A DNA stretch of 32,446 nucleotides from a virus. Location of the stretch: positions 1 to 32,446 of IMG/VR virus record IMGVR_UViG_3300037189_012531; one strand, given 5' to 3'. The notes beneath the pieces are model-generated. The model was not told the origin of the DNA. It made no database searches and saw only the letters and a program-made list of their open reading frames with translations. The position numbers and the translations under genes were made by a program. Position 1 is the stretch's first letter. Each line of letters opens with the position of its first letter. Positions 3,003-21,981 of the stretch are shown in pieces.

Positions 3003-4559
3003 TTATTCTCCTATCAATGCTTCAATAATACTGTCATCACCCTCTTCATATTCGGTGATATCTTCTACAGGTTCTGAATCGGTAGCTGCTTCGAATAATT
3101 GATCAAACATAGTCAGTGCATTGACAGTTTTCTTTCCACTAAAGCCTTGACTACCAGAACGCATCTGCATCCAGAATCTATCGTACTTATCAATTAAGTC
3201 TAAACTTTTTTGTCTATCCTTTAATGAAAAAATCTCATCTACTAATTCACTGAAGCGAATGCGCTCAAAGGTGTCGTTCATCACCATCTTAGGGATAACA
3301 CCCTGTTCATAATAACGATTGGCTTCTTGTACGGCATGAATGTGCTGATACACATTATGTGCTTGCAACAATGTATAGCTTAGTGTATCCCAGCTTGTCT
3401 TTGTCTCTTTACCATGAGCACCAATAAATCCTTGACCACGATAGCAAAGATCACGAACCATCATACGGTCAGTGATAGGACTATTAGCAAATAATTTGTG
3501 TATGCCGTCAGCTAGTACCGCATCTCTGAACTTGCGACTGTCGGTAGCATAGTCTTTGTTCTCCGCAGTCTTTTCCATCGAATAAGACCACTTTTTATTG
3601 TGTTCAATGTTTGTGTTGAAGTAAGCCAAACCCTTAGCCGCAGAGTAGAAAGGGCTAGCGCAATCGAACGTAATTTGTAATTTCGGATTGTGGTATTTAC
3701 GAACGGCTTTTTGTATGTCAGTGAATAAGACTGCGTATTCCAAGATGCTCGTGCCCAAGCAGTGAATGAGGTCATGTTTTCCTTCTTCCAATAATCCATC
3801 ATGGATGATATTAACGATTCTCTTTAATGTAAGGTGAATATCAATTTTAGTTTGACCACCGAACGCCCAACCATTAAAGTGATTGTCAGGATATACCTTG
3901 GAATCACAATACTTCTTCATTTCCTGGTACCAGTTCTCACTATCAGTATGAGTAAGACCTTGCATCACGTTTAAAAACTTACACTTACCAGTACGGTTGT
4001 TGATAAAGTATTCGTTATTAATATGCGTGGCTTTAATTGCATCTCCTAGATTGGCGATCTTATGTTGAGCAAATGCTTTAGTGTTTCTGTAAGATTCGCT
4101 AGGAACATCTAGACACATACCATAATCCATGTACGTATCCATCCAAGTCAATACTTCTTTACGTTTAGCTAGTGCTTTAGGGCAGTTAGGATCTTTCCAG
4201 TCAGCAGGCCATTGACCCTTTAGAATCTGAAATCCACCGCTATCACCTAACATGAATGTACCGTTCTCGCGCTTACGGATGATGCTTTCTGCAGGGTCAT
4301 TCTTAGTAGGATCTAAGTTAGCATGTCCTGCACTGTACAATCCCCACTTGTAAGTGTAGAGACCTTCCTTGCTATTAAGAAAATTCAAGCATTCAACATC
4401 ACCGTTGAACCCTACTGGTATGCGAGACTTTTCAAAATATTCTTCACCCTCACGCTGCTTGCCTAGTCCGGTAATGAAGAAGCTAGACACTGCTGGTAAG
4501 AACAGTGCCCAGTCTGGCTTTTGATTAGCTGATAAATTAACTGGTTCCAACTTGATCAT
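3003..4559 (-). CDS. dpdA: DpdA-like tRNA-guanine-transglycosylase-family protein
   Basis: A 518-residue protein that keeps several TGT-barrel signatures in order. GDSGGFQ is at 105-111 (TGT has D-x-G-G-F-Q). MCLDVPSES is near 148-155 (TGT MxLDxC) and VMQG near 198-201. WAFGGQTK is near 231-238 (TGT LGGLSVGE region), HCLGT is at 266-270, and FDCASP is at 298-303 (nucleophile Asp, here D299, as in TGT DCVxPT). The CxCxxC zinc site of canonical tRNA-TGT is not seen, and the chain is longer than bacterial Tgt; both features fit the DpdA group, which exchanges guanine in DNA for 7-deazaguanine derivatives. The start overlaps the clamp stop (ATGA), so it is expressed with the replication genes. 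The modification product and whether DNA or RNA is the substrate are not shown by sequence. Confidence 0.75.
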   Translation of the reverse strand: MIKLEPVNLSANQKPDWALFLPAVSSFFITGLGKQREGEEYFEKSRIPVGFNGDVECLNFLNSKEGLYTYKWGLYSAGHANLDPTKNDPAESIIRKRENGTFMLGDSGGFQILKGQWPADWKDPNCPKALAKRKEVLTWMDTYMDYGMCLDVPSESYRNTKAFAQHKIANLGDAIKATHINNEYFINNRTGKCKFLNVMQGLTHTDSENWYQEMKKYCDSKVYPDNHFNGWAFGGQTKIDIHLTLKRIVNIIHDGLLEEGKHDLIHCLGTSILEYAVLFTDIQKAVRKYHNPKLQITFDCASPFYSAAKGLAYFNTNIEHNKKWSYSMEKTAENKDYATDSRKFRDAVLADGIHKLFANSPITDRMMVRDLCYRGQGFIGAHGKETKTSWDTLSYTLLQAHNVYQHIHAVQEANRYYEQGVIPKMVMNDTFERIRFSELVDEIFSLKDRQKSLDLIDKYDRFWMQMRSGSQGFSGKKTVNALTMFDQLFEAATDSEPVEDITEYEEGDDSIIEALIGE

Positions 4560-10938: not shown

Positions 10939-12110
10939 GTTGTGTGGGTAGGAGCCCAAAAATTAGTAATAGTTGGCCAAACCATATGAACAAATTTTAC
11001 TAAGTCCAAATTAAAATCTGGGTTATCTGTTTGATCTATTCCTAGTATCGTGTGTAGTTTGTTAGCTTCATCATTTGCATTACGTACAAATAAATTGTAA
11101 TTATGTTCAACGTCATTATTAATAGCATCAATGTGGTTTCTTGATGTTTCTGCAAACGATTCAATATTTTTAATTGTAGCACTTAAGCGTTCTTGTTGAT
11201 CAACTATGTCATTGTATTCGGGTATCAACATGTATTCTTTAAATGTTCTATACCCTTTAGATTCCATCATTGACAGAAATCCTCTATGCCAGGATAAAAT
11301 GAACGGATGCATGTTGATTATAGCTCTATAACTCTTTTCAGTAAGTTTAGGCAAAAACCTAATCTCAGAATCTATGGATATTGCAAAATCAGATTCTGTT
11401 AATAAACTGAACAATGTTTTTTCGTACATGGTATGATCATAAGGATAACCTACGTATACAAAATCATCATTGCCAGCTACTGGTTTTAAATCTAGCGTAC
11501 TAGAAGTCTCTGTCATGAATTTTTGAAATTTGTCATCACTGTAATCAGAAAAAAATTCATTTTTGATGAAGTCTACGTGTTTTTTACTATAGTGACATGA
11601 CCACATCAATCTATTCAACGAATTGTTTTCCCATAGTCTACGCATAACCATAGCTCTATTGAACCTATTCATATTGCCGGGAGTGAATAGTCCTGATCTA
11701 GTTTGACTATTCCATTGAGTGTTTCTTTTTTGGTTGATGATTACACAACCGTGAACGTAAGTTACTAAGTTTAGATAGTGTACATAAATTATATCACTAG
11801 AGTCCATCCTATAATATTCTAAATGATCACCGTCGCAAATAAACTTATATCTATGTTGTACTTTACTTACTAGAATGGATCTTAATTCCCTAAACCTAGA
11901 TTCTATATCTTTAGTATATACTCTGCCTTCATTTACGTCCATAGCACAAATAAAGGGATCACTGCCGAATTTATTAGCAAATTCTATAATATAATCTATT
12001 GCTGTTGAAAATTGATCAAGATTAGCTAAGTACCCGTCATTCCTACCTACTTGAGTAGTTCCCCCTACTAGATAGGGATGTAGATTAATGTGCCGTATAA
12101 TATGTGACAT
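10935..12110 (-). CDS. Glycosyltransferase-like protein (distant GT10-like block), unknown substrate
   Basis: A 391-residue protein. Around residues 255-295, IRFLPKLTEKSYRAIINMHP, then FLSMMESKGYRTFKEY resemble the TEKxxxAIxxxHPFI...LxxxGYxTF block of phage GT10-related enzymes. The N-terminal half (FICAMDVNEG, YKFICDGDHLEYY) has an alpha/beta pattern and acidic residues but no clear DXD. The C-terminal third is helical. The start forms a TAATG overlap with the metalloprotease gene, so the two are cotranslated. Function as a glycosyltransferase is suggested only by one block; it may instead be a lectin-like or degenerate relative. Confidence 0.45.
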   Translation of the reverse strand: MSHIIRHINLHPYLVGGTTQVGRNDGYLANLDQFSTAIDYIIEFANKFGSDPFICAMDVNEGRVYTKDIESRFRELRSILVSKVQHRYKFICDGDHLEYYRMDSSDIIYVHYLNLVTYVHGCVIINQKRNTQWNSQTRSGLFTPGNMNRFNRAMVMRRLWENNSLNRLMWSCHYSKKHVDFIKNEFFSDYSDDKFQKFMTETSSTLDLKPVAGNDDFVYVGYPYDHTMYEKTLFSLLTESDFAISIDSEIRFLPKLTEKSYRAIINMHPFILSWHRGFLSMMESKGYRTFKEYMLIPEYNDIVDQQERLSATIKNIESFAETSRNHIDAINNDVEHNYNLFVRNANDEANKLHTILGIDQTDNPDFNLDLVKFVHMVWPTITNFWAPTHTT

Positions 12111-12688
12111 TATTGAAAAATGTGATGATTTTTTTCGCCGTAAATTTTAATATACTTACCTGCGAGTTCATCTGCCATTTTTTCTATGGGACTGCCAGGA
12201 TAACTAGAACCAGGTTTAATCAAACCAAGTTCACCTTGCCTTACATGGACCAATTCATGGAATACAGTTCTTAGTATATCAACTAGGTTTCTATTCTTAA
12301 CATATACCCAAACTTTATTAGAACCATCTTGATGACTCCCGGTGTGGTGCTCATCTTGTGCTTCTTTGGTGTCTTGACTTAGCTCTATGTCAGGTTGAGT
12401 TTTAAACTTAAGTATACCTTTAGCCCATTGTACAAACTTTTCTACTTCTTCTTCGACATTCACTTCTGACGAACCCTCTTCATCTAGTTTGTTTTTAATC
12501 CAACTATCTGGAGTGGTATGATAAAGCTTGATGAATTGATTATGCAACAAGTCGCCAGTAATTCTATGTTTTCTAGCTACCTTTTGCATCAATGTATCAA
12601 TCGTATCATAGTTGTGCTTTTCCAGGCTAGGTAAACGTTTGGCTAGCTCTTGTGCGGCAGTTTCTATGATAAAGTCTGTACTATTCAT
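12110..12688 (-). CDS. Capsid-tag-bearing zinc metalloprotease-like protein (HELVH)
   Basis: 192 residues. HELVH at 144-148 is an HExxH zinc-protease motif, and MADELAGKYIK (about 171-181) provides a downstream Glu as expected for the third ligand (E174). The protein starts MNSTDFIIE, with Glu at position 9 in the same pattern as four other proteins in this region, resembling T4 capsid-targeting sequences cut after Glu. The middle part (residues 70-120) is acidic and probably flexible. No signal peptide is seen. A GATAAATA late-type box sits 7 bases before the ATG, so it is probably expressed late. I infer a packaged, injected protease acting in the newly infected cell; the target is unknown. 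Confidence 0.65.
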   Translation of the reverse strand: MNSTDFIIETAAQELAKRLPSLEKHNYDTIDTLMQKVARKHRITGDLLHNQFIKLYHTTPDSWIKNKLDEEGSSEVNVEEEVEKFVQWAKGILKFKTQPDIELSQDTKEAQDEHHTGSHQDGSNKVWVYVKNRNLVDILRTVFHELVHVRQGELGLIKPGSSYPGSPIEKMADELAGKYIKIYGEKNHHIFQ

Positions 12689-12706: not shown

Positions 12707-13138
12707 TTAGTTACACCAGCTTTGCTTTGCTTCACCGAAGTAAGGTCTAGCATATCCATTTTTAATTAGCAAATCTCTTAGGCTTTTACCATCCAATACT
12801 ATATCGCCTAAAACACGACCACCGTACTTATCCCAATCCATGATAACTATTTGCCGTTTTGATGCTTGATTTATCACTTGTGATGTAAACTTAGTAGCAG
12901 CCTTTCCTCTCTCATCTTCTGATGCACAGTTAGCACGAAATCCCTTTTCAGGAGTATCAACTCCATATACTCTGATGCTTAGTTCTTTCTTTAATGGATC
13001 AGGTAAGAAATTAGCCTGGAACGCAACTGTGTCCCCGTCTATGATACGTGTGATTGGAAAGTCGTATACTACACCTTGTTTTTGTGCAAGTGCTGGTATT
13101 GAAATTAGTAATAATATCGTTGCTATAATTTTCTTCAT
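12707..13138 (-). CDS. Exported thermonuclease (staphylococcal nuclease family)
   Basis: 143 residues with a typical Sec signal peptide: MKKIIATILLLISIPALAQ, with probable cleavage after ALA. The mature chain follows the SNase fold: ITRIIDGDTVAF (Ca-binding Asp), IRVYGVDTPEKGF (catalytic Arg and Asp), ERGKAATKF (catalytic Glu region), YGGRVLGDI (second catalytic Arg) and SLRDLLIKNGYARPY. The nuclease would act in the periplasm or outside the cell. It follows the GNAT gene by 18 bases in an apparently late operon. Possible uses include breaking down competing or released DNA, or attacking superinfecting DNA in the periplasm; these are guesses. Confidence 0.9.
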   Translation of the reverse strand: MKKIIATILLLISIPALAQKQGVVYDFPITRIIDGDTVAFQANFLPDPLKKELSIRVYGVDTPEKGFRANCASEDERGKAATKFTSQVINQASKRQIVIMDWDKYGGRVLGDIVLDGKSLRDLLIKNGYARPYFGEAKQSWCN

Positions 13139-13156: not shown

Positions 13157-13882
13157 TTATCCTACCCATTGTGCATACAGGTATAAGAAATCTTCTTCTT
13201 CAGTATCATTGTCATGATATAAGTTTACACCAGGTGCGCCCAACTCGTTCCCGCCGTCCAACGATTCCACCGGAAATGTAAATGGCACCCAATCGTATCG
13301 ATCATACTTACTATAATTTACTAGTGGTTTGGCGCCTAATGATTGGAGTTTTTTTTGATTTGCTTTTGCTTCACGCTGAAAGTACGGGCCGGCACTTTCT
13401 AAATCAAAATTTTTACGTATTATCTTAATAACACCATTAACCCGTACGCCGGGCGTCTGATTAAGTTTTACCCATAGTTTTCGTGCTTGTGATGTTTGTG
13501 ACTCATCTGCAAAAATAACGTAACCAGCTTGTAATAATGTAGTATACATTAATATTCCTATACCCTGACCACGGTATCTAGAATCCAGTACAACATTACT
13601 AACTTGTATTGAATTAGCCAGCCCAGCAATTTTTATTTTTCTAAAACCCATCCATGAAATTAGAGCATAACCCTCTACATTAGCAGCGGATTTGTCATAA
13701 AAATAAACACGAAAATCGGTGCCACCACCCCAGTATCCTTTTTCAATGGCTGCTGATTTTTCTATAACATAAACAAAACGGTTATCGCCGGGTACAGGTT
13801 TCGCCCCTTTGAGCTTTTTATCTCGCTCATCAAATTCAATACCTGCTCCTGCGGGAGCACGTGTCAATTCTTGTATTTTCAT
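13157..13882 (-). CDS. GNAT-family N-acetyltransferase
   Basis: 241 residues. VVLDSRYRGQGIGILMYTTLL (about residues 97-117) is the GNAT motif A with the RGQGIG acetyl-CoA pyrophosphate loop. It is preceded by a beta strand and followed by AGYVIFADESQTSQARKLWVKL (motif B-type helix). The N-terminus MKIQELTRA is similar in length and spacing to the nine-residue tag of neighbouring proteins but lacks the Glu at position 9, so it may be untagged or degenerate. An ACTAAATA box is 5 bases before the ATG. It lies between the kinase/ParB cluster and a secreted nuclease. The substrate (protein, tRNA, small molecule) is unknown. Confidence 0.8.
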   Translation of the reverse strand: MKIQELTRAPAGAGIEFDERDKKLKGAKPVPGDNRFVYVIEKSAAIEKGYWGGGTDFRVYFYDKSAANVEGYALISWMGFRKIKIAGLANSIQVSNVVLDSRYRGQGIGILMYTTLLQAGYVIFADESQTSQARKLWVKLNQTPGVRVNGVIKIIRKNFDLESAGPYFQREAKANQKKLQSLGAKPLVNYSKYDRYDWVPFTFPVESLDGGNELGAPGVNLYHDNDTEEEDFLYLYAQWVG

Positions 13883-13983: not shown

Positions 13984-15117
13984 TCATTCGGTTTGCATAT
14001 TAAACCATGGATCAGTGATAACAATCGTATCACCGCGCATCATGGCATTTTCTGTATGCAAGTCCCAACCTATTTTATTAATTCTTCCTTTATGATATAG
14101 TAATGTCATTAGTTTGAATAATACTTCATATTCAAGTAAATCTCTTTCGTCTAATGAATCAAGTGTTTGCAGTATTAATGTGGGATCCATCCCCTCATCA
14201 TAATGCATCCAAGTTTTTTCATCACCTATTATCTGCTGTGCTTGTTGCCAACTCATTGGTTTTGTTGCAAGATCACTGAGTATCCAAACCATAGCCTCTT
14301 GAAAACTACCTACTGGAATAGGTCGCAATCTTTCCATAGTAACCATGACGTATTCTTTACCGTCTACTTCAAATACTTCTACTTCTTGTCCAGAGAAACG
14401 AGGTAAATTTTCCAAATTACGATTTTCTTTGCAGAATTCATAAAATTTCATAAAGGTGTCTCCGGCTAGTCCGGCACCTTGCCCATCGTCTGGCATAATA
14501 ATCTTAGTCACCGGTCCTGATTTCTTAGCCCAAACAGTAGCATCTGCGCCACTACCTAATAACTTATATCCTGCTCTGCGTAGACTTGTTCTTATTTCTT
14601 TACTAGCAGGTGTGTAACTTTCTGCTTCGTCTACTATACCTTCTTCTAGTGCAGATTCGGGTGCAAATAAAGGACCTTCTATAAAATTACCACGTTGACT
14701 GTATAACCCTTGGCTTAACGCTTTAATTATATTATTGGTTAAGTCTCTTCGGCGCATTCCTCCGCGAGGCAATAAATTCACTTGTACAGGATCATCACCT
14801 TTCATCTTAATCCAAACACTCATTCGGTTTCTACCCTCATGGCCAACAATTTTTGCAGCTTCTTCAAATACTCCGTCTTCCCACTCAGGTGGAATTTTTA
14901 TTTCTAAGAACGGATAAGCAATCTTACCTCCCGAACCCATATGTTTTTCTATTTCAGGATTGGTTTCAGAAGATCCTAAAGGTAGTGCTAATTTTAAAAA
15001 TGTGCTAGGCTTCATTTGGACTCTTAAGCCAAAATAATCTATGTCAGTTCCGTTGGGTGTTTGTCCCCAACCACTTGGATCTAGAACTGCTTCAGTGATA
15101 AATTCGTTTGCTCTCAT
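13984..15117 (-). CDS. Capsid-tag-bearing ParB/Srx-like + kinase-like fusion protein
   Basis: 377 residues. It starts MRANEFITE-A, the clearest of the tag sequences (compare T4 internal proteins, FIAE cut before A). Residues about 20-145 form a domain with VGHEGRNRMSVWIKMKGDDP, reminiscent of the E/D-G-R-H-R-x-x-A block of ParB/sulfiredoxin folds. Residues 180-377 are kinase-like: GYKLLGSGADATVW (glycine loop), VTKII (Lys 205), a catalytic WDLHTEN (D352, N357) and ITDPWF (Asp 369 in the DFG position). This is the APH/small-molecule or protein kinase pattern. A short acidic linker with LEEGIVDEAES (about 157-166) could be a second LxE-type cleavage site separating the two domains. It directly follows the ParB-like gene. 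Confidence 0.6.
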   Translation of the reverse strand: MRANEFITEAVLDPSGWGQTPNGTDIDYFGLRVQMKPSTFLKLALPLGSSETNPEIEKHMGSGGKIAYPFLEIKIPPEWEDGVFEEAAKIVGHEGRNRMSVWIKMKGDDPVQVNLLPRGGMRRRDLTNNIIKALSQGLYSQRGNFIEGPLFAPESALEEGIVDEAESYTPASKEIRTSLRRAGYKLLGSGADATVWAKKSGPVTKIIMPDDGQGAGLAGDTFMKFYEFCKENRNLENLPRFSGQEVEVFEVDGKEYVMVTMERLRPIPVGSFQEAMVWILSDLATKPMSWQQAQQIIGDEKTWMHYDEGMDPTLILQTLDSLDERDLLEYEVLFKLMTLLYHKGRINKIGWDLHTENAMMRGDTIVITDPWFNMQTE

Positions 15118-15119
15118 AA

Positions 15120-16331
15120 TTACATCACAAATATTTTACCAACACTATCACCTAACACATCGTTGAATAATAGTTCCATTGTATATGCTAGACTATCTGC
15201 TGCTTGTTTTCTTTCACCCTCATCACGATATTCAGGTTTGATGTTCATATACTTAGTAGGATTGCCGAATACTTTTCTACCATATGTTAAGTTAGTTGGT
15301 AATGGATTTAATGTTACTTTACCTGTACCTAAATATTGAGCAAACAACTCATACAAGAATTCATATGGACGGCGAATCTGACCACTTGTGCTGCTGCGCT
15401 GTGTACCCATAGCATTGAACAGTGCGTTGTATTCTGGTGTCATATCCCATTTAATTTCTGTTCTGTATGTGTTTGCACCACGATAGGCTTTTCCGTAATG
15501 TTCTTCCAATAATGCATTTACAGTTTGAAAGAAATACTTTTCTGCTTCGCCCCATGCAGTCCAGTTCTTATTTCTAGCACCTGCATTTATAGCATGACCA
15601 AAACGATGTGCCATCATCCAGGGTGTTAGCATTACTTTTCTATCACCCTTGTTCCCTACATATACGACAGTGATAGCATCTTCGCTACCATTGATAATTT
15701 CATCAGCATCTTGACCAAACACTTGTCTAATTTGATCTGGACTCATAGGTCCATGTTCACTATACTTACCGGTACCTGAGATATTGCTAAAGAATAATCT
15801 AAAGTCGAAGGGAGTTTGTTCAAAGAATCGTGTAGCCTTTTCTATATTCTTAGGATGTGGTACTAATTTCTTATCTGCTCCTGTGAATGGTCCTGGCTTA
15901 CTAAAGTCACCCATAGTCTTATAGGTTTGTAATGCCATTTCATCTAATTCATCTAAGTCTGCTAGATCAACATAATTGATGGGTACACCCTTCATCGCTG
16001 CTGCTAACGCACGATGATTGCCATCGATGATTCTATCGCCTGAAAGTAGAATTACTTTCTCACTAAGACTAGGATCATTCATGTAACGATGTAATATCTC
16101 TTGTTGATCTTCATCCATCATGTCTAGTATTTCATCTAGATGTTCAACACGATATTGACTCTGTAACATGATTGCCAATTTATATTTTGGCATTATTTTT
16201 ACTTCTAATTCATTGTCAAATTCATCAGGTCTTACCTCGTCCCAGAACGATTCATCACGTTCAGGAAAGTTACCGTCATACAACTTGTTTAATGTTGTTT
16301 TATTTTCGCTTAAAAATTCACAGGCTCTCAT
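15120..16331 (-). CDS. Capsid-tag-bearing ParB-like protein with C-terminal unknown domain
   Basis: I choose the ATG at 16331 (403 residues), not the longer frame from 16346. It forms an ATGA overlap with the upstream kinase-like gene, has GGGGAAGAG upstream, and gives the N-terminus MRACEFLSE that matches the tag family. LLSGDRIIDGNHRALAAAMKG (residues 95-115) is the ParB/Srx nucleotide-binding motif, followed by the strand VPINYVDLADL. The C-terminal two thirds contain MMAHRFGHAINA then WGEAEKYF, which recall a zinc-peptidase helix with HRxGH in place of HExxH, so that part may be a degenerate metalloprotease. Activity could be a CTP/ATP-dependent enzyme as in ParB, Srx or SerK; not provable here. 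Confidence 0.6.
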   Translation of the reverse strand: MRACEFLSENKTTLNKLYDGNFPERDESFWDEVRPDEFDNELEVKIMPKYKLAIMLQSQYRVEHLDEILDMMDEDQQEILHRYMNDPSLSEKVILLSGDRIIDGNHRALAAAMKGVPINYVDLADLDELDEMALQTYKTMGDFSKPGPFTGADKKLVPHPKNIEKATRFFEQTPFDFRLFFSNISGTGKYSEHGPMSPDQIRQVFGQDADEIINGSEDAITVVYVGNKGDRKVMLTPWMMAHRFGHAINAGARNKNWTAWGEAEKYFFQTVNALLEEHYGKAYRGANTYRTEIKWDMTPEYNALFNAMGTQRSSTSGQIRRPYEFLYELFAQYLGTGKVTLNPLPTNLTYGRKVFGNPTKYMNIKPEYRDEGERKQAADSLAYTMELLFNDVLGDSVGKIFVM

Positions 16332-17017
16332 GTACTCTTCCCCCAACCCATGAAGAAAGGATCACTGATAACAGGAGTACCATCACTACCCAGCATAAAG
16401 TTACCTTGATGTAGGTCTAATTTGTAACCATTTTTCTTTGCTACCTTTTTCAACATGACAACTGTATTCCACAACTTTTTTAGTCCTTTTTCACCTACAT
16501 GCATTATGACCTGTTGCATGGTTTCTTGCCTGGTGATACGGCGAACTTGCTGCCATACTGGTAGTTTATGGGAAACAGGAGTAGTAGCAGTAGACCAAAA
16601 TTTATCGAACGTGCTATTTCTTTCTATATCATCTGCCATGTCAGCCAATACCTCATTCCAATTTTTTACACTTCGACTATTAAACTCAAATAATCTTTCC
16701 ATACGTATCTGTAAGTAGGGTTTACCTCCATACATAAATGGTTCATAATCCAGGATCTCGGGTAAAAACTCATTTCCCGGGTCTGCTTTAGAAAGATCAT
16801 AAAATGTCTTGAAACTTTTTTGTGCGTTAGTAAGTTCGCCGGCTCCACCGCTATTACCACGACTTGTACCGAATATTTTTAGTATTAGACCAGATCCAGG
16901 TTCTAGGAATACAACCTGATCGGCACCTTTACCTAATTTTTTATAGCCTTTGCGTAGTAGATGAGAAATTACTCCCTGTCCAACATAGGCTTCGGATATA
17001 AAGTCAGTGGATTTCAT
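16328..17017 (-). CDS. Capsid-tag-bearing kinase-like protein
   Basis: 229 residues beginning MKSTDFISE-A, with Glu 9. The rest is a compact kinase-like fold: GYKKLGKGADQVVFLE (glycine loop 24-39), LILKIFG (Lys 47), YLQIRMERL (hinge region), LDLHQGNFML (catalytic Asp 201 and Asn 206) and VISDPFF (Asp 219 in the DFG position). It shares both ends of the fold with the larger kinase-like protein at 13984-15117 and is probably its paralogue without the N-terminal domain. It overlaps Dps by TAATG on one side and the ParB-like gene by ATGA on the other. As in T4, injected enzymes often modify host targets at once, so host protein or nucleotide phosphorylation is a reasonable guess. Confidence 0.65.
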   Translation of the reverse strand: MKSTDFISEAYVGQGVISHLLRKGYKKLGKGADQVVFLEPGSGLILKIFGTSRGNSGGAGELTNAQKSFKTFYDLSKADPGNEFLPEILDYEPFMYGGKPYLQIRMERLFEFNSRSVKNWNEVLADMADDIERNSTFDKFWSTATTPVSHKLPVWQQVRRITRQETMQQVIMHVGEKGLKKLWNTVVMLKKVAKKNGYKLDLHQGNFMLGSDGTPVISDPFFMGWGKST

Positions 17018-17457
17018 TACTCGCGTTCTACTTTTAATATTGAACGAATAAACCAGGCTTTCTTACCATATAAGTCTTGTAGCTCAGCCATATAGTTAGC
17101 AATGCCTTGTTGTCTTTCTGCTGTTGCTTCATCAAACATAGCGATAACTAGTTCAGACATTTTTTCGCAATCTTGCAATGATTCAGCAAACATTAATTGA
17201 GCGCGTGGAATTTTTACTTGATCTTCTATTATAGTTAATTGCCCATAACGTTGCAAACTACCTGGAGTATAATGACCTAAGATTCTGATATACTCTGCGA
17301 TAGGATCAATCGTCCCACTCACATCACTGTATAATGTATCATAGAATGCATGGTATTGCGGGAAGTTACTACCTTCAACATTCCAGTGAAAGTTTTGACT
17401 TTTGATAGCAAATGACTGAGTACTTGCTAATAGTATTTTTAAGTTATCTGCTAACAT
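17017..17457 (-). CDS. dps: Dps-family ferritin-like protein
   Basis: 146 residues with the Dps pattern. NFHWNVEGSNFPQYHAFYDTLY (22-43) contains the family's HW and H-x3-D ferroxidase residues (H24, H36, D40). TIDPIAEYIRILGHYTPGSL (49-68) contains D51 and E55 of the D-x3-E pair, followed by the typical LG-x-x-x-x-GSL turn. Dps forms twelve-subunit shells that bind and mineralise iron with peroxide and protect or compact DNA. It lies inside the operon of tag-bearing proteins and has AAGGAAAG as its ribosome site. It does not itself carry the nine-residue tag. It might guard packaged or freshly injected DNA from oxidants, or sequester iron in the host. Confidence 0.85.
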   Translation of the reverse strand: MLADNLKILLASTQSFAIKSQNFHWNVEGSNFPQYHAFYDTLYSDVSGTIDPIAEYIRILGHYTPGSLQRYGQLTIIEDQVKIPRAQLMFAESLQDCEKMSELVIAMFDEATAERQQGIANYMAELQDLYGKKAWFIRSILKVERE

Positions 17458-18464: not shown

Positions 18465-19595
18465 TTAAGCCTTCTTGTTTTTATTGTCTAAATAGCCGCG
18501 CTTGTTAGCAGTAGCCCAGGCAATGTTCTCTGCTTCTTTCTTGGGGTGACCTAATCCACGCTCACTCTTAGCAATATGTTTGACCATGCGATCTACTTTA
18601 GCGCCTTCAGACAAACCAAGATCATCTCCAAAACTATGATAGTAATCATATATGTCTTTGTAGCCATTCTTTTTAGCAGCACGATCTAGAATATCACCAA
18701 TTTTGTGATCAGCAATGCCCTGCTTTCTGAACCATGGAAGTAACCAATCGATCGGGTCACCGTCGGGATATATCTGACCTACAACATCCTCAACTTTACG
18801 CCATACATCACTTAACATTAATTTAGGTGCTGCTGATTTTGTAGCTGCTAATTTAGGAGGCTTATTAGCTTCACGCTCTGCCTTAGCTGCGGTGCGATTA
18901 TCGTATGCTTTCTTCTTAGCCCAATTACGAGGATCATTTGCATTAAATGGATACCCACCTACCATGCCTTCTCCTACACCGCCTCCTGCGATAACACCAC
19001 CTGACATTTCTTGCATACTCTTGCCTTCTAAATATTCGGCAAGCGTGTTCATGTAGTCTGCTGCTTTAATAATTTTTTCTTGTACCCAACCTTCAAGCCC
19101 TTCATCTTCTGATCTGTCTTTGATCAGCATCATAACAGTTTTTGTATTTTTAAAAAGCTGCAATAAATCACTTTTAGCCATTTCAACTTCATGATCTACT
19201 CGGCTTTGACCATGTTGAACAAACCCTGTTTTGCGTTTCACACCTTGCCCGGGTACAAGAATTAAATCTTCTTCGTCTAACTGTGCTTCTTGTACGGGTT
19301 GCTTGGGCTTCTGCTGCATAGACTTACGCATTTCTTCTTTTGATTTGCCATACTTCTTTTTGAAGTCAGCATCATTCAATCCGTCTCTACCGCCTCTCAA
19401 GTCCATAGAAAGGTCTTTCATTTTGCTTTCGCTTAAGCTATTAGCATAAGGTGCTTTTTTCTTTTTAGTTGCACTGCCCACTGGCTGTAGTCCACGAACA
19501 GTAGGTCTCTTTTGTGTTTCACCCATGGGCTTAGCCACTGATGCCACTGAACCGGCTACAGTAGCCATTTCAGATACAAGTTGATTAATTTTCAT
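18465..19595 (-). CDS. Tag-bearing internal-head-protein-like protein with several LxE-type sites
   Basis: 376 residues beginning MKINQLVSE-M, with Glu 9. Much of the first 250 residues is low-complexity and basic, with further possible prohead-protease-like sites such as SLSE-S, PVQE-A and QLDE-E. In T4, internal proteins and scaffold are cut at several L/I-x-E positions. The C-terminal part has two compact modules: a helical one near WLLPWFRKQGIADHKIGDIL, and a terminal one, RMVKHIAKSERGLGHPKKEA then AENIAWATANKRGYLDNKNK, seen in many aquatic phage proteins. The gene follows a GATAAATA box with a 17-nt leader containing GGAAAT. I read it as the first gene of the cargo operon and a possible core or internal head protein. 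Confidence 0.5.
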   Translation of the reverse strand: MKINQLVSEMATVAGSVASVAKPMGETQKRPTVRGLQPVGSATKKKKAPYANSLSESKMKDLSMDLRGGRDGLNDADFKKKYGKSKEEMRKSMQQKPKQPVQEAQLDEEDLILVPGQGVKRKTGFVQHGQSRVDHEVEMAKSDLLQLFKNTKTVMMLIKDRSEDEGLEGWVQEKIIKAADYMNTLAEYLEGKSMQEMSGGVIAGGGVGEGMVGGYPFNANDPRNWAKKKAYDNRTAAKAEREANKPPKLAATKSAAPKLMLSDVWRKVEDVVGQIYPDGDPIDWLLPWFRKQGIADHKIGDILDRAAKKNGYKDIYDYYHSFGDDLGLSEGAKVDRMVKHIAKSERGLGHPKKEAENIAWATANKRGYLDNKNKKA

Positions 19596-20373: not shown

Positions 20374-21981
20374 TTAACTCCTCAATAAAGGTGGAACACC
20401 GGACCTCTTGACATTAAAACCAAACGCTTTAGTATTCTTTTTTATTGCGTCTGGTTTAACATCTACTGTAAGAGCAGTCTTGAATCGCGGATCATTCTTT
20501 TCTTTTTCGCTCGGGATATATCCGGAGCTTTCACTTATGGGTATGGCCAAATCTCTAGATAATACACGTATTCTGTCAGGTGGTATCGGTGTTGTTATTG
20601 CAATTTCAAAATCAGCCCCATCCGTAACATTGCCATCTAATCCTTCAGTATCAATCTCTAATAATGCAAGAGGTTCATCTTCTTCAAATTCATCACCTAG
20701 CCAATTCATTACTGCATCTTCCATACTGGTTTTATCAGGGAAGCAATAAATTGCAGACTTTTCATCTACCATCTTACTGGATCGGTTCCCCTTTTGAGGT
20801 ATCAATCCTTTAGATAAGATACTATCTAAATTTTCACTAGGAGTAACATGATATATCTTTTTAGGCAACTCATCCTGATCCTCATTAACATTGTATGTAG
20901 GATCAACTTTTTGACGTTTCATCCCTTTTGGTTGATTAGGATCAACAGGGTCTATGTCAGTAGTAGTAAGTCCCAACTTCTTCAATGCGTCAATGTACTT
21001 GTGTTCCTCTTCTTCACGACCAAATGCCATAATGGTGCTCGGTGGTCCTTTACCGAATATCTTAGGGTCTGCTTTGTCTAGATTACTGATATACTGACCT
21101 AGTTTATACCAATCATACACATCACTAACATCTACTCTCACTGTACCTTTAGGCATAGTAGGCTTAAACTCTGGCCCGGGTGGAGGACCATTTGGATAAT
21201 AATCTTCAAACTCTTTTGATAGCTTTTCCTTCAGATTATCTTTCTGTAGCTTAACAGGATTTTTATACATTGTCTCTATAGTCAATGATTCGCTATGTAG
21301 CTTATCTCTAAGGGCATACAGTTTGGTAATATACCCTTGACTACGTAATGCTTTATATGCTAGATTTTCAGGACCAAACTCTCCAAATTTATCCAAGCCT
21401 GCTTGTCTGTACTGTCTAATTTTCTTTATGATATCATTTATTTTTTCTAAATTTTTAAACTTTAGTGCATGTTGAACTAGGGTTAATAACTTTTCATATT
21501 TTACTTTAGTAGCAGTATTATCAAAATTAGCTCTACGTTTGGTAGGTAATCTAAGCCACTTGTCTTGTAATATACTGTATTCTCCTAGACTTACTGCAGG
21601 TTCATTTATATCCTGCACATATAGTTCTACTGGCACATCATGAACTTTGATATCGTGACTATCATTATAGATAGTCTTTTTAGCATTGAAAAGTTCTTTA
21701 TATACTTCATCGTCAGACAAGTCTTTCATGTCGATAAGTATGTGTAAATCTAAATCGCTATGAGGAGTATAACTATATGCTGCATTGCTACCAGATATAG
21801 TAAGGTCTTTCACATCAAGACCACTCACACCTAATTCTTCTAAGAAATCTTCAGCAATTATTTTTAACTGCTTTTTAACTTCAGGGCGAAGGTGATTCCC
21901 GTGCCAAATTTTTGGATTCAGCGCATTGTGAAACTTAACAGCATCGCTTAAGCGAAAAGATTCTAAAGTTTTTATGTCCAT
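20374..21981 (-). CDS. Pol-beta-type nucleotidyltransferase fused to ADP-ribosyltransferase-like domain
   Basis: 535 residues in three parts. Residues 60-125 carry an NTase signature, GSNAAYSYTPHSDLDLHILI (D76 and D78) with a third acidic residue in VELYVQD (E119), so catalysis is plausible. Residues about 280-347 hold a module VRVDVSDVYDWYKLGQYISN ending in LGLTTTDIDPVDP. Residues 375-475 contain KIYHVTPSENLDSILSKGLI, then SAIYCFPD and DGADFEIAITTPIPPDRI, which follows the H-x-T...NL-x-x-IL-x-x-G-L pattern of DarT/KptA-like ADP-ribosyltransferase folds. The protein lacks the N-terminal tag of its neighbours. A GATAAATA box is 4 bases before the ATG. A nucleotide-transferring effector or toxin is likely; the target is unknown. 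Confidence 0.6.
   Translation of the reverse strand: MDIKTLESFRLSDAVKFHNALNPKIWHGNHLRPEVKKQLKIIAEDFLEELGVSGLDVKDLTISGSNAAYSYTPHSDLDLHILIDMKDLSDDEVYKELFNAKKTIYNDSHDIKVHDVPVELYVQDINEPAVSLGEYSILQDKWLRLPTKRRANFDNTATKVKYEKLLTLVQHALKFKNLEKINDIIKKIRQYRQAGLDKFGEFGPENLAYKALRSQGYITKLYALRDKLHSESLTIETMYKNPVKLQKDNLKEKLSKEFEDYYPNGPPPGPEFKPTMPKGTVRVDVSDVYDWYKLGQYISNLDKADPKIFGKGPPSTIMAFGREEEEHKYIDALKKLGLTTTDIDPVDPNQPKGMKRQKVDPTYNVNEDQDELPKKIYHVTPSENLDSILSKGLIPQKGNRSSKMVDEKSAIYCFPDKTSMEDAVMNWLGDEFEEDEPLALLEIDTEGLDGNVTDGADFEIAITTPIPPDRIRVLSRDLAIPISESSGYIPSEKEKNDPRFKTALTVDVKPDAIKKNTKAFGFNVKRSGVPPLLRS

What the first reader, a model, noticed from the sequence alone, without database searches (positions are those of the whole stretch)
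13984..17017. Two kinase-like proteins flank a ParB/Srx-like protein, and one kinase carries its own ParB/Srx-like domain
The 229- and 377-residue proteins both have a glycine loop, an invariant Lys, D-L-H-x-x-N and a DPF/DPW in place of DFG. The 377-residue protein adds an HEGRNRM block that resembles ParB/Srx. Between them is a ParB-like protein with IIDGNHRALAAA. Kinase, nucleotide-binding ParB fold and tag are mixed and matched like modules. ParB folds include CTPases and small-molecule kinases (SerK), so a common chemistry is plausible. All three carry the capsid tag.
Basis: partly seen in the sequence, partly recalled or inferred. Interest (0 to 1): 0.72.

Follow-up and report, generated by a model that had tools for sequence, protein, structure and literature searches.

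The report
Capsid-tagged phage kinases with shuffled modules
A large T4-related virus of bacteria appears to load two small protein kinases and a two-domain ParB-like protein into its head behind the same short address tag that phage T4 uses for its internal proteins, so that they can be delivered into the bacterium with the DNA at the moment of infection.

Summary
K229 and K377 are mini-kinases of the T7 gp0.7 kind. All 25 relatives scanned hit the PHROG of T7 gp0.7, 7 of 25 hit Pfam Kinase-PolyVal, the K377 model aligns to protein kinases, and the catalytic residues are invariant in about 85 sequences. The chain stops a few residues after DPW/DPF, the same loss of the late C-lobe reported for polyvalent-protein kinases. 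The middle protein has two domains: a ParB/Srx-like N-domain and a zincin-like C-domain with HRxGH in place of HExxH. K377's N-domain (HEGRNRM) is a separate family, ParB/Srx-like in layout only. Across 227 fetched loci the modules are found in at least six combinations. All three proteins begin with M[RK]xxEF[IL]xE. A profile of this tag picks T4 IPII and IPIII first out of 103 T4 ORFs; half of the large related records carry T4-type gp21 protease, and the gp23 prodomains read there end in the same kind of site. Best reading: virion-packaged, protease-processed effector kinases delivered at injection to rewire the host. Packaging, injection and kinase activity are inferred, not shown. A shared ParB/kinase chemistry is not supported. 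New variant of a known kind.

The parts
16328..17017 (-). K229: tagged stand-alone mini-kinase (229 aa), DPF subfamily
   Evidence: (PHROG 15752 = T7 gp0.7 kinase, E 1.5e-5), alignment, motif positions (K47, D201, N205, D219)
16991..17017 (-). Capsid-targeting-like tag of K229, MKSTDFISE followed by A
   Evidence: [I/L]xE prohead-protease site
15120..16331 (-). Two-domain protein (403 aa from the ATG; 408 aa from the TTG at 16346): tag, ParB/Srx-like N-domain, zincin-like C-domain
16305..16331 (-). Tag of the middle protein, MRACEFLSE followed by N
15948..16304 (-). PBN module: ParB/sulfiredoxin-like domain with IIDGNHRALAAA
   Evidence: model residues 43-128 match ParB-CTP Z 5.8, Srx Z 4.4, BrxU Z 2.5; alignment; also fused to kinase and to KN elsewhere
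15123..15947 (-). PBC module: widespread domain with invariant HR[FI]GH and YExxAQY, weak zincin-like fold match
   Evidence: alignment (21 sequences, 58-89% identity to the window sequence), (zincin metallopeptidases, Z up to 4.0 only; Foldseek: nothing significant)
13984..15117 (-). K377: tag + KN domain + mini-kinase (377 aa), DPW subfamily
   Evidence: (PHROG 15752 E 5.8e-9, residues 170-370), model pLDDT 83.7, kinase matches Z up to 9.5 over residues 171-377
15091..15117 (-). Tag of K377, MRANEFITE followed by A
14662..15075 (-). KN module with invariant HxGRxR (HEGRNRM), ParB/Srx-like layout, family otherwise unknown
   Evidence: (34 diverse sequences), secondary structure, top hit name; negative:
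14002..14607 (-). Kinase module of K377 (K205, D352, N356, D369)
12110..12688 (-). Neighbouring protein with a weaker tag (MNSTDFIIE|T) and a HELVH metallopeptidase-like motif
   Evidence: sequence; tag score 10.1
18465..19595 (-). Neighbouring protein with a weaker tag (MKINQLVSE|M)
   Evidence: Tag score 7.5

Best explanation
The three genes encode virion-packaged effectors of a T4-superfamily phage. In the late phase the short N-terminal tag M[RK]xxEF[IL]xE carries each protein into the prohead core. The phage's gp21-type protease then cuts after the Glu, freeing the mature protein inside the head (inferred from sequence). On infection the proteins enter the cell with the DNA (inferred by analogy with T4 IPs and Alt). 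K229 and K377 are gp0.7-type protein Ser/Thr mini-kinases that most likely phosphorylate host gene-expression proteins before any phage gene is expressed (family by profile; substrate inferred from T7 gp0.7). The ParB/Srx-like PBN, the KN domain and the zincin-like PBC are exchangeable partner modules; binding of nucleotide, DNA or protein to direct the kinases or act on their own is the likeliest role (inferred). Shown here: fold and family of the kinases, invariance of their catalytic residues, modular reshuffling, the tag and its match to T4's capsid targeting sequence, and co-occurrence with gp21/gp23 in related records. Not shown: packaging, cleavage, injection, phosphorylation.
For: Kinase family: all 25 members hit PHROG 15752 (T7 gp0.7), best E 1.5e-14; a family profile finds T7 gp0.7 collinearly at 27.6 bits; Pfam Kinase-PolyVal in 7 of 25, best 4.7e-4. 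Structure: K377 residues 171-377 align to protein kinases, Z up to 9.5; viral hits include many T7-like 'protein kinases'. Catalytic residues invariant. Reshuffling: kin alone, KN-kin, PBN-kin, KN-PBC, PBN-PBC, PBN-KN. Tag: 57/205 versus 0/262; a tag profile ranks T4 IPII and IPIII first of 103 T4 ORFs, 15.3 against 5.7 for the next; no ORF of jumbo phages CBB or RaK2 reaches 8. T4's CTS is the first 10 residues of IPIII, residues 4 and 7 drive targeting, 8 and 10 processing (PMC9026906); MKTYQEFIAE aligns so that F7, I8 and E10 match the conserved F6, I/L7 and E9 here. T4 gp21 cuts after L/I-x-E. Of 18 large records carrying the modules, 9 have gp21 and 11 a gp23 match; the gp23 prodomains in the seven records read from this lineage end in an [I/L]-x-E-like site before SxxxG. 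Fusion partners (GNAT, NTase, KptA-like, zeta-toxin-type AAA, chitinase/cell-wall hydrolase, nucleotidase) match the polyvalent-protein repertoire (PMC5512222).
Against: No member of this lineage was found among isolated phages: tblastn of the three proteins and of two relatives gave no match in 50,697 phage records, so there is no virion proteome. The window and its closest long relative (G001, 124.8 kb) have no gp21 or gp23 hit; that evidence comes from other records with the same modules. Not every relative is tagged: 36 of 61 complete stand-alone kinases score at least 5, the other 25 lower. Untagged kinase-like proteins of jumbo phage CBB (CBB_444, CBB_445) are not in its virion mass-spectrometry table, so kinases of this broad kind need not be virion proteins. 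No invariant alpha-C Glu, so catalysis is not guaranteed. The tag could also mark proteins acting inside the prohead.
Confidence: 0.68

Rival explanations
1. The kinases are packaged, or at least core-targeted, but work during head morphogenesis: they phosphorylate scaffold or shell proteins in the prohead and have no role in the next host.
For: The tag would place them in the core with gp21/gp22-type proteins; T4 IPIII itself affects head assembly (PMC9026906).
Against: The tag also precedes many unrelated enzyme domains (GNAT, chitinase, amidoligase, GGACT), a mixture hard to reconcile with assembly and usual for injected effectors (PMC5512222); different phages of the group carry different kinase and partner combinations.
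Confidence: 0.12
2. The kinases are made and act inside the infected cell like T7 gp0.7, and the N-terminal motif is a short conserved leader without packaging function.
For: T7 gp0.7 is an early expressed, not packaged, protein (PMC4858673); untagged relatives exist in the same lineage and in CBB/RaK2.
Against: The same 9-residue motif precedes many unrelated protein families, matches T4's experimentally mapped CTS, and carries the gp21-type site also seen at the gp23 prodomain of these phages.
Confidence: 0.12
3. The kinase domains phosphorylate small molecules (APH-like or SerK-like) rather than proteins.
For: The best Foldseek PDB matches are APH(2'') aminoglycoside phosphotransferases, and the DLHxxN catalytic loop resembles APH.
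Against: Sequence profiles point to gp0.7 and polyvalent protein kinases; the structural re-alignment ranks protein kinases first; the chain stops right after DPW/DPF, so the C-terminal helices that hold aminoglycoside substrates in APH (from general knowledge) are absent.
Confidence: 0.06

Closest known systems
Phage T7 gp0.7 protein kinase (PHROG 15752)
   Same: Collinear mini-kinase: GFKMLGNG, VIKV, FDMHSGNIMF, YITDP; all 25 members hit its PHROG. The 30 kDa N-terminal domain is an active Ser/Thr kinase on RNAP beta', RNase III, RNase E (PMC4858673)
   Different: gp0.7 is expressed early, has a C-terminal transcription shut-off domain and no capsid tag; here there is a tag, two paralogues per genome and exchangeable N-terminal modules
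Kinase-PolyVal (PF18762) of polyvalent proteins, Iyer et al. 2017
   Same: Loss of the late C-terminal kinase subdomain, fusion to ParB/Srx-like, peptidase, GNAT, NTase and ART-type domains, proposed injection (PMC5512222); 7 of 25 members hit the Pfam model
   Different: Mostly separate short tagged proteins rather than one giant polypeptide; the Pfam hit seen in full (L213) is below the curated cut-off; T4-superfamily phages rather than prophages of Verrucomicrobia/Bacteroidetes
T4 internal proteins IPI-III and Alt (capsid targeting sequence, gp21 processing)
   Same: N-terminal tag almost identical to IPII/IPIII (MKTYQEFIAE|A); L/I-x-E site
   Different: The mature proteins are kinases and ParB-like/zincin-like modules, not IPs or an ADP-ribosyltransferase; packaging untested
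ParB/sulfiredoxin superfamily, including phage P1 DdrB-like ParB
   Same: PBN: GNHR motif and fold matches to ParB-CTP, Srx-ATP and GmrSD. P1 DdrB is also a processed head protein (PMC5512222)
   Different: No Pfam or NCBIfam ParB hit; Z at most 5.8; KN not detectably related to PBN

Membership tests
T7 gp0.7-type protein kinase | Profile similarity over the catalytic core | tested here: met
   25/25 members hit PHROG 15752, best E 1.5e-14; reverse search 27.6 bits
T7 gp0.7-type protein kinase | Invariant catalytic Lys, Asp, Asn and Mg-binding Asp | tested here: met
   84/84, 85/85, 85/85, 85/85
T7 gp0.7-type protein kinase | C-terminal host-transcription shut-off domain | tested here: not met
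   K229 and K377 end a few residues after DPF/DPW
T7 gp0.7-type protein kinase | Ser/Thr phosphotransfer to host proteins | not testable with these tools
   Needs protein
Kinase-PolyVal (PF18762) | Pfam model match | tested here: inconclusive
   7/25 members, best E 4.7e-4; the window kinases themselves do not match
[quoted passage not shown]
   Alignment, model, conservation
T4-type capsid targeting sequence | About 10-residue N-terminal propeptide ending in L/I-x-E | tested here: met
   definition from PMC9026906
T4-type capsid targeting sequence | gp21-type prohead protease with L/I-x-E specificity in the same virus | tested here: inconclusive
   Present in 9 of 18 large related records with [I/L]-x-E-like gp23 prodomain ends; not found in G001; the window is a 32-kb fragment
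T4-type capsid targeting sequence | Protein found processed in the virion | not testable with these tools
   No cultured member
ParB/Srx superfamily (PBN) | ParB/Srx fold with the GxHR-type motif | tested here: inconclusive
   Motif invariant but for one G-N to G-Q change; coherent fold matches but Z at most 5.8; no family-library hit
ParB/Srx superfamily (KN, HEGRNRM) | ParB/Srx fold | tested here: inconclusive
   Strand/helix order compatible, best viral hit named ParB/Sulfiredoxin; no profile link; domain not searched alone
Zincin metallopeptidase (PBC) | HExxH zinc motif | tested here: not met
   Invariant HR[FI]GH instead, 21 of 21 sequences
Zincin metallopeptidase (PBC) | Zincin fold | tested here: inconclusive
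   Best re-alignments over 133-399 are largely zincins but Z at most 4.0; nothing significant in Foldseek

The most novel reading that the evidence does not exclude
A group of uncultured T4-superfamily phages has turned the T4 capsid targeting sequence into a general cargo system: a shared address tag placed before a library of exchangeable effector modules (two kinase subfamilies, two ParB/Srx-like domains, a zincin-like module, GNATs, hydrolases). A pre-made kinase cocktail is then delivered at injection, with the ParB-like modules tying some of it to nucleotides or to the incoming DNA. This would be a split-up, capsid-delivered form of polyvalent proteins and the first virion-packaged phage protein kinases known to me.
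Probability: 0.45. Interest if true: 0.78.

Novelty: new variant of a known kind. Interest (0 to 1): 0.62.

Why it matters
T4 injects an ADP-ribosyltransferase and T7 makes a kinase early in infection; a phage group that ships kinases ready-made in the head would join both strategies. The shared tag makes the whole injected arsenal readable from sequence: any ORF starting M[RK]xxEF[IL]xE in this lineage becomes a candidate injected effector, which gives direct access to unknown host-takeover and anti-defence proteins. It also makes testable the suggestion that the CTS is an evolutionary device for packaging new cargo (PMC9026906).

Tried and rejected
Pfam on the three proteins: nothing. tblastn against 50,697 phage records: nothing. 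Solved-structure sequence searches: no significant hit (for the kinase profile the best was 0.017, an NleH1 effector kinase fragment). KN against PBN by hhalign: no similarity, so 'two copies of one ParB domain' is rejected. KN and PBN against Pfam, NCBIfam and (KN only) PHROG: only scattered chance-level hits. Foldseek on the middle protein: nothing significant; the best-ranked lactate dehydrogenases are noise. A first alignment for folding misplaced the KN-only rows on the kinase and was replaced. RaK2, CBB, Atu_ph07 and Phosso, among the nearest by DNA polymerase, have no relative of these kinases by profile search; weak kinase-like genes in CBB and RaK2 lack the tag. One scan of 84,980 bacterial and archaeal genomes (one conserved peptide pattern) found no relative of the kinase. 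Considered and rejected: pseudokinases, since the catalytic residues never vary.
Full report
WHAT IS THERE. The window is a 32-kb fragment of a virus record, a large T4-superfamily myophage by gene content and by its DNA polymerase, whose nearest isolated relatives (about 41-48% identity) are jumbo phages such as Sinorhizobium Phosso, Agrobacterium Atu_ph07 and the RaK2/CBB group. The three ORFs of the finding are real, consecutive, same-strand and nearly overlapping, preceded by a Dps/ferritin-like gene. The closest long relative (G001, 124.8 kb; loci L002, L055-L061) keeps the kinases and the middle protein in the same order.

KINASES. K229 and the C-terminal 200 residues of K377 are homologous (31% identity, E 8e-12). 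Both hit PHROG 15752, the T7 gp0.7 protein kinase family (E 1.5e-5 and 5.8e-9), as do all 25 diverse relatives tested. The reverse search finds T7 gp0.7 collinearly at 27.6 bits (single-target E-value, so quote bits). Pfam Kinase-PolyVal is found in 7 of 25 members. The AlphaFold2 model of K377 (pLDDT 83.7) aligns to protein kinases over 171-377 with Z up to 9.5; Foldseek gives APH(2'') first at about 1e-4 and, among viral models, many T7-like 'protein kinases' at 1e-7 to 1e-4. In about 85 sequences the glycine loop, Lys, hinge Glu, catalytic Asp, Asn and DP are invariant; an alpha-C Glu is not. The chain stops after DPW/DPF, the loss of the late C-lobe that Iyer et al. describe for polyvalent kinases (PMC5512222). 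Two subfamilies (WDLHTENAM..DPW and LDLHxGNFML..DPF) occur in the same neighbourhood in several phages (L001, L002, L008, L011), which argues for different substrates.

PARTNER MODULES. The middle protein has two parts. Residues 43-128 match ParB-CTP, sulfiredoxin-ATP and the GmrSD-type BrxU: weak Z, but a coherent list. Residues 133-403 form a conserved module (58-89% identity to the window sequence among 20 relatives) with invariant HR[FI]GH and YExxAQY; its best, weak matches are largely zincins (Z at most 4.0), and the HExxH glutamate is replaced by Arg in every sequence, so it is probably not a classical protease. The HEGRNRM domain of K377 is a separate, abundant family (more than 60 ORFs). 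Its predicted order strand-helix-helix-strand-helix-strand-motif-helix-strand fits a ParB/Srx core and the top viral hit to K377 is named ParB/Sulfiredoxin, but profile comparison with the other ParB-like domain is negative. So 'ParB-like' is likely for PBN and open for KN.

SHUFFLING. In 227 loci I found kinase alone, KN-kinase, PBN-kinase, KN-PBC, PBN-PBC, PBN-KN and the single modules. Longer fusions add GNAT, nucleotidyltransferase, KptA-like, zeta-toxin-type AAA, 5'-nucleotidase, chitinase or cell-wall hydrolase domains, and other tagged ORFs add chitinase, GGACT, amidoligase and GNAT domains, close to the known polyvalent repertoire.

TAG. The N-terminal motif is M[RK]xxEF[IL]xE (75 unique examples under a slightly looser pattern). 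It is N-terminal only (57/205 versus 0/262) and stands before 133 further ORFs in 36 sequence clusters. Scored on 103 T4 ORFs, the tag profile ranks IPII and IPIII (MKTYQEFIAE|A) first, far above the next. In T4, the first 10 residues of IPIII suffice for capsid targeting; residues 4 and 7 matter for targeting, 8 and 10 for processing (PMC9026906). F7, I8 and E10 correspond to the conserved F6, I/L7 and E9 here. Of 18 large records with these modules, 9 carry a gp21 protease and 11 a gp23 match. In the lineage's gp23 sequences that I could read, the prodomain ends YIAE|S, LLAE|S, QLSE|S, SLME|S, YLSE|S, NIME|S or YLAE|S (cut positions inferred by alignment with T4); the more T4-like G027 was not clear. 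The protease site in the tag and at the capsid protein is thus of one kind.

MECHANISM. Most likely: core targeting by the tag, cleavage after Glu by gp21, retention in the head, injection, and phosphorylation of host proteins before phage expression. Family, motifs, tag and co-occurrence are shown; packaging, cleavage, injection, substrates and timing are inferred. T7 gp0.7 gives the best guess for targets: RNAP beta', RNase III, RNase E, translation factors (PMC4858673).

LIMITS. No cultured member is known in the collections searched, so no virion proteome exists. The window and G001 are fragments; G001 has no gp21 or gp23 hit. Many kinases of the lineage score low for the tag, and distant kinase-like proteins of CBB are untagged and absent from its virion table, so packaging is a property of the tagged members only, if at all. 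Two literature searches turned up no packaged phage protein kinase, but the library is partial.

Noticed in passing
window 20374-21981 (-): 535-aa protein with a nucleotidyltransferase-like N-domain and a weak KptA-like stretch (PHROG 36119 E 2.7e-38); a similar N-terminal style (Mxx-K-L-SF-DAVK) heads proteins L116 and L213 that carry PBN-KN or kinase modules.
   Followed up: partly
window 12707-13138 (-): Protein with a signal-peptide-like start (MKKIIATILLLISIPALAQ) and a thermonuclease-like IIDGDT motif, by eye; a relative lies in G001 at 79629-80063. A secreted nuclease next to injected-effector genes would be odd.
   Followed up: no
window 3003-4559 (-): GDSGGFQ motif, by eye like queuine/archaeosine tRNA-guanine transglycosylases (DpdA-type); suggests 7-deazaguanine DNA modification.
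   Followed up: no
window 12110-12688 (-): Tagged protein with an intact HELVH metallopeptidase motif; a relative (MKANDFVNE) is in G001 at 80080-80655.
   Followed up: partly
window 13157-13882 (-): GNAT-like protein (PHROG 15502 E 7.4e-10, weak Pfam Acetyltransf_7) starting MKIQELTRAP, perhaps a decayed tag.
   Followed up: no
window 17017-17457 (-): Dps/ferritin-like DNA-binding protein directly upstream of K229 and overlapping its start (Pfam Ferritin 5.1e-15), untagged.
   Followed up: no
L269 3205-3789 and 3808-4314 (CBB_444, CBB_445); L270 2616-3200 (RaK2 ORF356): Unannotated kinase-like proteins (GEGSSRRVY / GKGCSRMVY / GRGSSRTVF loops) in jumbo phages CBB and RaK2, surfaced as viral structural hits to K377; untagged, and the CBB pair is absent from the CBB virion table.
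   Followed up: partly
L214 and L213: Proteins with two or more kinase-domain hits in one chain (827 and 1220 aa).
   Followed up: no
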